Of a stretch of DNA of 64,000 nt, positions 15,281 to 30,218 are shown one piece after another (position 1 is the stretch's first letter; each line of letters opens with the position of its first letter). This DNA comes from Methylomarinovum caldicuralii (GTDB taxonomy: Bacteria > Pseudomonadota > Gammaproteobacteria > Methylococcales > Methylothermaceae): assembly GCF_033126985.1 (NCBI RefSeq), contig NZ_AP024714.1, forward strand, positions 1,938,990 to 2,002,989, in the 5' to 3' direction. A program made the translations under genes and the position numbers. The notes beneath the pieces are model-generated. The model was not told where the DNA came from, made no database searches, and saw only the letters and a program-made list of their open reading frames with translations.

Positions 15281-17572
15281 TCAGGGAACCGCCGGCACCT
15301 GAAGCCGCACCGCCTCCGGCGCCAGGCACTGCCGGTCATCGCAGGCCTGCAGCCGCAGCTTCAGCGGCAACGGGCCCTGCCCGAGATTAGCCCGGAAACG
15401 CAGCTCGACCCGGCCCTGATACAGCGACAGCGGCCGGCGGCTGTCAAGCATTTCGACACCCCAGGGCGGAGGATAGGCGATCGGCCCCAGGCGCCAGCCG
15501 CAGGCGGGTGAGTCCAGGGTCAGGCGGGTGGGGATGCGGTCTTCGCCCGGTTCCGGGCCGTTGAGGTGCCAGCCGTCGGCGATCCTGAGCCAGACCACGC
15601 CTTTCCCTCTCTGTAAAAAGCCGCTGACACGGACATGGCCGCGGGCGGCCCACTGCACCGGGCCGGTTTCGCCCTGTTCGAACTCGCGCAGGGCCAGCAG
15701 CAGCCAGGCGAACCCCGTGGGACTGCGGCGAACTGAAAGCCCGAGGGCGGCGGCCAGCCGGCGCAGGCGGGTTCGGTATTCCAGCCGGGGGGCGCGGCGC
15801 TGGAGGCGGGCCAGCACCCGGGCGGCGGCGGCGTTGCCGGAGGGCTGGGCGCTGTCGTAGAGGTCCTTGGGCCGCACCATCAGCGGCTCTTCCCCGCCGC
15901 GGTTCATGAAGAAGCCGCCCTGCGCTCCGTCCCAGAACTCGGCCAGCATGGTGGCGGCAAGCTCCCGGGCGCGGTCGAGCCAGAGCGGATTGGCGCTCAT
16001 GTCGTAGAGGGCCAGCAGGCCCTCGGCGAGGAAGGCGTAGTCCTCCTGCAGGCCGTCGCCCCCGGCGCGGCCGTGCAGGGAGGCGCGCAGCAGCCGGCCG
16101 CCGCGGCGGTGGTGCTTCCACAGGAAATCGGCGGCGCGGCGGGCGGCGAGCAGGTATTCGGGTTCGTGGAGCAGGCGGGCGGCCTCGGCCAGGGCGGCGA
16201 TCATCATGCCGTTCCAGGCGGTGACGAGCTTGTCGTCGCGCAGGGGCGGCACCCGCCGTTGCCGCACCCGGTACAGCCGCTGGAGGACATGGTCGAGCCG
16301 GGTCAGCAGTTCGTCTTCGGTCATTCCCCTGGCCCGGGCGATTTCTGCCAGGGGCCGGGGCAGGTGAAGCACGTTCTTGCCCTCGAAATTGCCGGCTTCG
16401 GTGATGCCGAAGACTTCGATGGCCAGCTCGGCATCGGCCGGCGGCAGGGCGGCGCGGATTTCGGCTGGGGTCCAGAGGAAGAACTTGCCCTCCTCCCCTT
16501 CGCTGTCGGCGTCGGTGGCCGAATAGAAGCCGCCGCCGGGGGCAGTCAGCTCCCGCAGGACGTAGTCGAAGGTTAGGCGGGCGGTGCGTTCGAAAAAGCG
16601 GTCGCCGGTGATCGCGGCGGCGTGGGTGTAGATGCGGCCGAGCTGGGCCTGGTTGTAGAGCATCTTCTCGAAGTGGGGCACCTGCCAGGCGGCATCGGTG
16701 CTGTAACGGTGAAAGCCGCCGCCGACCTGGTCGCAGAGGCCGCCGCGGGCCATGGCGCCGAGGGTCTTGCGCACCACTTCCAGCACCTTGGGATCGTCAC
16801 TGCGCCACAGTTCGTCGATGAGCAGGGCCAGCCACGGCTCGTTGGGAAACTTGGGGGCATCGCCAAAACCCCCGTGGCGGGGATCGAAGCGGGCGACGAT
16901 TTCGTCGATGGCGCGATGAACCAGGGATGCGTCGATCTCCGCCTGCCCCTCCGGCTGCTGCAGCCGCGCCACTTCCTCGGCGACGCTGCCGGCCTGGGCC
17001 TCGATCTCCCGACGCCGGGATTTCCAGGCCTCGGCGACGCGCAGCAACAACGTTTTGAATTGCCCCGGCGGGAAATAGGTGCCGCCGAAGAACAGCCTGC
17101 CGTCCGGGGTCAGGAAGGCCGACAGGGGCCAGCCGCCGTGGCCGGTGAGCAGCTGGACCGCGCTCATGTAGGCGGCGTCCACGTCGGGACGCTGCTCCCG
17201 GTCCACCTTGACCGGCACGAAACGGCGGTTGAGGATGGCGGCGATTTCCGGGTCCTCGAAGCTCTGTTCCTCCATCACGTGGCACCAGTGGCAGGTGGCG
17301 TAGCCGATGGAGAGAAAGACCGGCTTGTCCTCCCTTTTGGCCTTTGCGAAGGCTTCCGGCCCCCAGGGATACCAATCCACCGGGTTATGGGCGTGCTGGA
17401 GCAGGTAGGGGGAGTCTTCGAGGATCAGGCGGTTGGTGTATCGGGGGCTGCCGTCGGGGTTCAGGTGGCGGGTGCGGGGACGGTAACCGGGCCCTTTGGC
17501 CTGGAGGGCCGCCTGCAGTTTTCGCTGTAGTTCGGCCGGGTAGGTGATGCCCTCGGCGTGGGGAAGGGACAT
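15281..17572 (-). CDS. YyaL/DUF255 thioredoxin-fold protein with C-terminal DsbD-like domain
   Basis: A 763-residue protein. The N-terminal thioredoxin-like DUF255 domain has the motif [19 protein letters not shown] near residue 95, followed by [14 protein letters not shown]. The middle is an (alpha/alpha)6 glycoside-hydrolase-like barrel as in YyaL/SPATA20. Residues about 637-763 look like an added domain: [16 protein letters not shown], then [15 protein letters not shown], which resembles the N-terminal reductase-binding domain of DsbD. The start at 17572 has GAGG 8 bases upstream. An in-frame TTG at 17635 would add [14 protein letters not shown], a poor signal peptide. Biological role is unknown. 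Confidence 0.8.
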
Positions 17573-17689
17573 GGCACTGGCCTCGAAGGTGAGGAAAAGA
17601 GCGGTTCTACGCCAGGGCCGATAATGCCACCACAATCACAACAAAAAAGAAACAATTGCGGGAACAAATCCATATTTATGCAGTCTATG

Positions 17690-17783
17690 GAAACGAGTGT
17701 TCATCACTTACCTCCTTCTTAGGGTCCTCCTCATGGGTATTGCTCCCATGCCTTGGCCCGCCCTTCCCGGCGGGCCTTTTTTT
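17690..17783 (+). ncRNA. Candidate trans-acting small RNA with two anti-Shine-Dalgarno motifs
   Basis: This gap between two minus-strand genes contains, on the plus strand, CCTCCTT (17711-17717), TCCTCCT (17725-17731), a perfect 6-bp hairpin CATGGG/CCCATG (17732-17750) and a strong Rho-independent terminator. No plus-strand gene precedes it, so an independent RNA is the simplest reading. The 5' end is estimated. Unstructured C-rich motifs that pair with ribosome-binding sites are known from other bacterial small RNAs. The complementary strand could instead encode a 22-residue peptide behind a perfect Shine-Dalgarno. Confidence 0.5.
17755..17783 (+). terminator. Rho-independent terminator, plus strand
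   Basis: GGCCCGCC, loop CTTCCC, GGCGGGCC, then seven T. The T-run is only on the plus strand, so it cannot serve the minus-strand gene ending at 17786. Confidence 0.85.
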
Positions 17784-27987: not shown

Positions 27988-28064
27988 GCCCCGATAGCTC
28001 AGCTGGATAGAGCGTCCCCCTCCTAAGGGGAAGGCCCCAGGTTCGAATCCTGGTCGGGGCGCCA
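27988..28064 (+). tRNA. tRNA-Arg (anticodon CCU)
   Basis: A full cloverleaf: acceptor GCCCCGA/TCGGGGC, D arm GCTC...GAGC, anticodon stem TCCCC/GGGGA with loop CTCCTAA (CCT), T arm CCAGG TTCGAAT CCTGG, discriminator G and encoded CCA. It reads AGG codons. Confidence 0.95.
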
Positions 28065-30119: not shown

Positions 30120-30218
30120 GTGACCGAGTTCCGCCGCGCCTAGGCTGATCACCGAAAGCCGGGGATCCCTTGCCCGGTTGGCGCGGCGATCCTTTGAGGG
30201 AATGCCTGGAGGGAGGCG

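What the first reader, a model, noticed from the sequence alone, without database searches (positions are those of the whole stretch)
17690..17783. Candidate small RNA with two ribosome-binding-site-complementary motifs
Seen in sequence: an orphan plus-strand terminator preceded by a 6-bp perfect hairpin and two exposed pyrimidine motifs, CCTCCTT and TCCTCCT, in a gap between two minus-strand genes. That layout (unpaired anti-Shine-Dalgarno motifs, stem-loop, terminator) is typical of trans-acting translational repressors. With the many AAGGAGG-type sites in this genome it could have broad targets.
Basis: partly seen in the sequence, partly recalled or inferred. Interest (0 to 1): 0.66.

Follow-up and report, generated by a model that had tools for sequence, protein, structure and literature searches.

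The report
Stress-type small RNA blocking ribosome sites
A short RNA gene, found in all ten examined genomes of this methane-oxidising bacterium's genus, looks as if an envelope-stress sigma factor switches it on and as if it blocks protein synthesis by covering ribosome-binding sites; it is a new family of a known kind of regulator.

Summary
Plus strand 17690-17783 has ACCUCCUU, UCCUCCUC, a 6-bp hairpin and an 8-bp all-G-C terminator with seven T; it folds far better than shuffles (z -4.62, 0 of 200). The RNA was found in 10 of 10 genomes of the genus (family Methylothermaceae by record titles), four of them not used in the model. Eight of 14 base pairs change on both sides, against 0-2 when partners are slid. 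It lies divergent from a yyaL/DUF255 gene in 10 of 10, while the far neighbour changes. Conservation does not follow the minus-strand frame (2 to 124 codons).

New: all ten have GGAAC-N16/17-GTC just upstream, the pattern (recalled) of RpoE/sigma-E promoters. In this genome the same pattern precedes a second conserved RNA with a UUUCCUCCC loop, between polA and engB, a locus of known C-rich sRNAs.

Best reading: an envelope-stress-controlled, trans-acting anti-Shine-Dalgarno repressor; new family, known kind. Transcription, sigma factor and targets are untested; no specific target was found. Motif 2 is exposed (0.88), motif 1 only half (0.52), and motif number varies.

The parts
17661..17686 (+). 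promoter-like element GGAAC-N17-GTCT (sigma-E/ECF type by recalled consensus)
   Evidence: GGAAC and GTC invariant in 10 of 10 genus genomes, spacer 17 in eight and 16 in two; pattern alone is not enriched in the genome (56 hits against 85 for its backwards control)
17690..17783 (+). predicted small RNA, about 94 nt; the 5' end is inferred from the promoter-like element
   Evidence: fold z -4.62; covariance model match in 10 of 10 genus genomes; covariation
17702..17717 (+). CAT-N7-CTCC(TT): motif 1, complement of an SD-spacer-ATG start site
   Evidence: CAT-N7-CTCC in 9 of 10 genomes, CAT-N7-CCTC in G001; motif 1 mean unpaired 0.52
17725..17732 (+). motif 2, UCCUCCUC, anti-Shine-Dalgarno, mostly single-stranded
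   Evidence: mean unpaired 0.88 for its CUCCU
17732..17750 (+). hairpin CAUGGG-UAUUGCU-CCCAUG
   Evidence: 4 of 6 pairs with changes on both sides, 93.3% of cells paired
17755..17783 (+). intrinsic terminator, 8 G-C pairs and seven T
   Evidence: 4 of 8 pairs with changes on both sides, 98.7% of cells paired
15281..17572 (-). yyaL-like gene (PF03190, DUF255), divergent neighbour kept in the genus; linked, not part of the RNA
   Evidence: divergent in 10 of 10 loci

Best explanation
It is an independent small-RNA gene. An ECF sigma factor, most likely RpoE (sigma-E/AlgU type), transcribes it from the GGAAC-N17-GTCT element, probably under envelope stress (inferred). The roughly 94-nt RNA ends at its own terminator and its U-tail may bind Hfq (inferred). 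Its single-stranded UCCUCCUC, helped by ACCUCCUU, pairs with Shine-Dalgarno sequences of mRNAs and keeps ribosomes off (inferred). Shown by comparison: conservation of the RNA in the genus, covarying stems, terminator, fixed promoter-like blocks and its place beside yyaL.
For: 10 of 10 genus genomes, four of them not in the model, at E 8.4e-14 to 1.8e-9. 8 of 14 pairs with changes on both sides, 0 of 500 shuffles and 0-2 in slid versions. GGAAC-N16/17-GTC in 10 of 10. An RpoE equivalog in this genome (TIGR02939), with a match in all ten at E <= 1e-60. A second conserved RNA with a UUUCCUCCC loop under the same kind of element between polA and engB; ErsA, which I recall lies at that locus, is sigma22-driven (passages of PMC5819304 and PMC8575079). 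An Hfq gene. The architecture matches NmsRA, whose two anti-SD motifs were shown to repress translation (PMC5362039 section 8).
Against: No transcript data. The promoter pattern is not enriched in this genome (56 against 85), and rpoE itself is preceded by a sigma70-like region rather than by this pattern, so the sigma factor rests on consensus and on the sibling RNA. Motif 1 is only half exposed here and 0.31 in G009. The covariation alignment was fitted to the model's structure. Pairing with predicted start regions does not separate them by threshold (46 of 48 starts and 226 of 240 gene-interior pieces reach -14 kcal/mol), and the difference in means is partly circular. No specific target was found.
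Confidence: 0.68

Rival explanations
1. A real sRNA with C-rich motifs, but driven by another sigma factor and acting on one or a few specific mRNAs (perhaps the linked yyaL) rather than as an envelope-stress repressor of many.
For: The link to yyaL holds in 10 of 10. The genome encodes several other sigma-70-family factors (8 matches to PF04542). The GGAAC pattern is not enriched, and rpoE lacks it.
Against: G009 has lost the middle of yyaL yet keeps the RNA. The same promoter type stands before the polA-engB RNA. The SD-complementary letters are generic, not gene-specific.
Confidence: 0.2
2. A minus-strand element: leader peptide or small protein with the strong start GGAGG-N6-ATG, or a cis element of yyaL, that only looks like an sRNA on the plus strand.
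For: On the minus strand GGAG-N7-ATG is kept in 9 of 10 genomes and ATG AAC ACT in 8 of 10, always upstream of yyaL.
Against: Frame length 2 to 124 codons, three genomes stopping after 10 and one after 2. It does not explain the plus-strand T-run terminator, the covarying stems or the GGAAC/GTC blocks.
Confidence: 0.07
3. A chance terminator and chance C-rich runs in a gap; no functional RNA.
For: Terminator-like sites as a class are no commoner in this 7 kb than in shuffles, and no sigma70-type promoter-like site was found.
Against: Ten-genome conservation, covariation and fixed upstream blocks, although five of the ten lack AIM24 beyond the RNA.
Confidence: 0.03

Closest known systems
NmsRA/NmsRB sibling sRNAs of Neisseria meningitidis
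   Same: Short sRNA with stem-loops and two UC-rich anti-SD motifs that repress translation (PMC5362039 abstract, passages and section 8 seen)
   Different: Second motif lies in a hairpin loop, not in a linker; under stringent-response (RelA) control, not a sigma-E-type promoter; single genes here, no tandem; no sequence homology shown
Betaproteobacteria toxic small RNA (RF02278)
   Same: UCCUCC, then hairpin, then terminator, in the same order (alignment)
   Different: 23.8 bits against a gathering score of 50; its hairpin loop is itself C-rich
suhB / mmgR / alpha-R8 sRNAs (RF00519)
   Same: Anti-SD 10-mer and terminator; SisA of Caulobacter represses many targets (PMC12559287, passages)
   Different: 29.1 bits against 41; the alignment rests on the terminator and does not match the CCUCC motifs to each other
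ErsA (RF01719) and sX13 (RF02232), C-rich sRNAs; sX13 beside polA
   Same: ErsA is sigma22-driven and Hfq-assisted (PMC5819304, PMC8575079, passages); sX13 represses through C-rich loops (PMC3771888, passages). The sibling RNA of this genome sits between polA and engB
   Different: The window RNA is shorter, beside yyaL, with motifs in linkers; sX13 12.2 bits against 50, ErsA not among its listed matches. The sibling too is below threshold (ErsA 28.5, sX13 31.4, both against 50)

Membership tests
Any Rfam 15 family | score at or above the family's gathering score | tested here: not met
   No match at this place at gathering; best below it suhB 29.1 of 41, RF02278 23.8 of 50
trans-acting anti-Shine-Dalgarno sRNAs (functional kind) | single-stranded CCUCC-type motif kept across relatives | tested here: met
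   At least one CUCC motif before the terminator hairpin in 10 of 10; best-exposed such motif 0.87-0.94 in eight genomes, 0.80 in G002, 0.47 in the fused motif of G005 (for G005 the count covers only part of its run)
trans-acting anti-Shine-Dalgarno sRNAs (functional kind) | represses translation by pairing with SD sites | not testable with these tools
   Only energy estimates, partly circular
sigma-E/RpoE-dependent sRNAs (functional kind) | sigma-E-type promoter at the right distance | tested here: inconclusive
   GGAAC-N16/17-GTC in 10 of 10 against a recalled consensus; pattern not enriched genome-wide, rpoE lacks it
sigma-E/RpoE-dependent sRNAs (functional kind) | loss of expression without RpoE | not testable with these tools
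   Needs an experiment; an RpoE gene is present
Hfq-dependent sRNAs | Hfq encoded; U-tail | tested here: met
   Hfq 105.3 bits; seven T after the stem
Hfq-dependent sRNAs | binding to Hfq | not testable with these tools
   Needs co-precipitation

The most novel reading that the evidence does not exclude
The 5' part is the complement of a whole translation start site: CAU, seven bases, then CUCC (9 of 10 genomes; CCUC in G001), so that the RNA would clamp Shine-Dalgarno and AUG together on many mRNAs. With the C-rich polA-engB RNA under the same promoter type it would form a two-RNA, sigma-E-driven general brake on translation initiation.
Probability: 0.12. Interest if true: 0.7.

Novelty: new member of a known kind. 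Interest (0 to 1): 0.42.

Why it matters
It adds a defined, lineage-specific sRNA family to the methanotrophs; my two searches on this (listings only) showed no paper describing such an RNA in this family or order. If true, anti-Shine-Dalgarno RNAs have been put under envelope-stress control in these bacteria, perhaps more than once: a differently placed GGAACTT...TC / GTTCCTCC element turned up in 6 of the 7 searched genomes of another Methylococcales genus. That makes a simple question testable: does envelope stress here lower translation broadly through SD-binding RNAs?

Tried and rejected
Rfam membership: none at threshold; the best weaker hits rest mostly on the terminator.

Minus-strand small protein or leader peptide: not kept.

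Order-wide pattern GGAACTTN{15,17}TCN{4,34}TCCTCC: 55 places in 47 of 301 genomes, against roughly 80 for the backwards control by my hand count, so not enriched; it also misses the window RNA itself, whose letters are GGAACAA.

Autoregulated rpoE promoter as proof of the motif: not found in the ten genomes; a TTGAAC...GATAAT region is seen instead, by eye.

Targets of the 5' part: RGGN7ATGAACAC with one mismatch gave 90 hits against 11 for the backwards control. 16 are identical copies of one repeated sequence, two more are near copies, one is the locus itself. I judged the rest by their letters only and did not open the loci, so the excess (possibly codon usage) is unexplained and a real target could be among them.

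Homologs outside the genus: 75 more of 301 order genomes at E <= 1, best 1.1e-5; 44 more of 369 class genomes at E <= 0.01, best 1.6e-7. I read 15 of the 20 fetched order loci and 15 of the 18 listed class loci; the others were cut at contig ends. They share C-rich runs and terminators; apart from L090 and L095 (genus g16) I saw no GGAAC element at the right place, and I did not count them as family members.

BepA-like gene (388.7 bits, below its cut-off of 570) at L045 with GGAAC-N18-GTCT: left open.

Full report
OBSERVATION. The plus strand 17690-17783 reads as described: ACCTCCTT 17710-17717, TCCTCCTC 17725-17732, hairpin 17732-17750, terminator stem 17755-17776 and T7. The terminator has 8 G-C pairs and is the only one of five in 7 kb with that stem and seven T; as a class, terminator-like sites there are not above chance (5 against 5.5). 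The RNA folds at -33.7 kcal/mol, z -4.62, 0 of 200 shuffles as low. A simple scan of the window finds no other anti-SD motif followed by a perfect 7-9 bp stem and T-run. Motif 2 is well exposed (0.88), motif 1 half (0.52). The neighbours are yyaL/DUF255 (PF03190) and AIM24 (PF01987), both on the minus strand.

CONSERVATION. blastn with the locus found strong matches in six more genomes of the genus. A covariance model from six of these seven genomes (G005 left out) found the RNA in 10 of 10 genus genomes; the four not used in it scored E 8.4e-14 (G005), 4.6e-13 (G002), 1.4e-11 (G006) and 1.8e-9 (G001). A scan of named genome contigs with the core pattern gave five contigs, all titled Methylothermaceae; their lengths equal those of the contigs holding the RNA in G007, G006, G003, G008 and G004, which places the genus in that family. 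On the ten-sequence alignment 96.4% of cells pair and 8 of 14 pairs change on both sides (15 cells); 0 of 500 shuffles reach this and slid versions give 0-2 such pairs. That alignment was fitted to the model's structure, which favours it. Folds of seven of the genomes have z from -2.78 to -4.62, with 0-2 of 200 shuffles as good; in G008 the best fold differs.

CONTEXT. yyaL lies divergent beside the RNA in 10 of 10 (in G007 only its first 92 residues are on the contig); AIM24 lies beyond it in 5 of 10, in G004 as a 33-residue piece at the contig end. In G009 yyaL appears to have lost about residues 37-487, yet the RNA is intact. CAU-N7-CUCC on the plus strand is kept in 9 of 10, CCUC in G001; I read it as a property of the RNA, with less certainty than the rest.

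PROMOTER. GGAAC and GTC are invariant in ten of ten, 17 nt apart in eight and 16 in two; G002 and G006 read GGAACTTT...GTCTAAG. The sigma-E consensus (GGAACTT, about 16 nt, TCnnA) is recalled, not looked up. An RpoE equivalog is encoded here (TIGR02939, 305.6 bits) and matches in all ten genomes. Against: the pattern GGAACN{16,18}GTCT has 56 hits in this genome and 85 for its backwards control, and rpoE has a sigma70-like upstream region instead. I accounted for the 56 hits crudely: 30 with loci, 18 by stretches, three in the window, and five not opened but letter-identical to a repeat already opened. Hits without a covering open frame were this RNA (only an 80-codon opposite frame), L042, L045 (63 nt before a BepA-like protease gene, spacer 18) and L049, upstream of a 16S rRNA gene; a second identical stretch, L213, had a 146-codon open frame. 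Some of the covering frames may be spurious.

SIBLING RNA. L042 carries GGAACTTTTGCC...GTCTTAA followed by an RNA of about 120 nt with loops holding UUUCCUCCC and CCCCC and a 12-bp terminator stem (127 nt folded, z -6.67). It was found in 9 of 10 genus genomes, not in G004, a draft in about 530 contigs. In the alignment of these nine GAACTTT and the TC of the second block are invariant; GTC is kept in seven, G005 and G001 have CTC, and G002 and G006 begin TGAAC. UUUCCUCCC is present in nine of nine. It lies between the end of polA (DNA polymerase I, 743 bits against 720) and engB/yihA (227 bits against 124). sX13 and Spot 42 lie at polA loci (PMC3771888, passages); that ErsA does is recalled. 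ErsA is sigma22-driven and Hfq-assisted (passages of PMC5819304 and PMC8575079). Rfam matches of the sibling are below threshold: ar14 33.4 of 58.8, sX13 31.4 of 50, ErsA 28.5 of 50.

ELSEWHERE. In the order the promoter-plus-motif pattern is not enriched overall, but 6 of the 7 searched genomes of genus g16 carry GGAACTTGCTT...TC...GTTCCTCC; in the five I printed, a terminator-like stem and T-run follow (read by eye). The g16 loci hold no yyaL or AIM24 match. Weak model hits in other orders show C-rich runs before terminators; I claim no homology.

MECHANISM. Best reading: an ECF/sigma-E-controlled sRNA that covers Shine-Dalgarno sites. The nearest tested parallel is NmsRA, where changing either of two anti-SD motifs abolished repression of all targets but GltA, which needed only the second (PMC5362039 section 8). 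Pairing of the RNA with 48 predicted start regions of the window is stronger on average than that of shuffled RNAs (-25.6 against -23.5 kcal/mol, 0 of 20 shuffles as low) and than with gene interiors (-21.8), but starts were picked by SD strength, so this is partly circular, and at -14 kcal/mol starts and interiors do not differ (46 of 48, 226 of 240). No specific target emerged. Hfq is encoded.

NOVELTY. A new family of a known kind. Searches of an open-access library on methanotroph or Methylococcales sRNAs and on Methylomarinovum listed nothing on it; only listings were seen.

Noticed in passing
G000:C1:60196-60376 minus (L042 about 1369-1526 minus; L194): A second conserved C-rich RNA (loop UUUCCUCCC) between polA and engB, behind a GGAACTT...GTCT element, in 9 of 10 genus genomes; below all Rfam thresholds.
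   Followed up: partly
L114, L115, L116, L117, L120 (genus g16): Another Methylococcales genus has a GGAACTT...TC element followed by GTTCCTCC and a terminator-like stem, at a place without yyaL; 6 of 7 searched genomes.
   Followed up: partly
L073 1648-2571 (G009): yyaL appears to lack about residues 37-487 in G009 although the RNA beside it is intact.
   Followed up: partly
L184-L193, upstream of rpoE: rpoE of this genus is preceded by a conserved TTGAAC...GATAAT region that looks like a housekeeping promoter rather than by a GGAAC...GTC element.
   Followed up: partly
L049 about 1525-1500 minus; L213: GGAACTT...GTCT occurs twice, identically, in this genome; at L049 it lies about 200 bases upstream of a 16S rRNA gene.
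   Followed up: no
L167, L175, L181: Three genomes of other families in the class share CTCCTCCG(A/G)CGCTGAAA followed by a terminator: perhaps a further anti-SD RNA family.
   Followed up: no
window 30133-30200 plus: int-alpA RNA (RF02996, 53.6 bits) with tRNA matches at 27988, 28258 and 31677, perhaps an integrated element.
   Followed up: no
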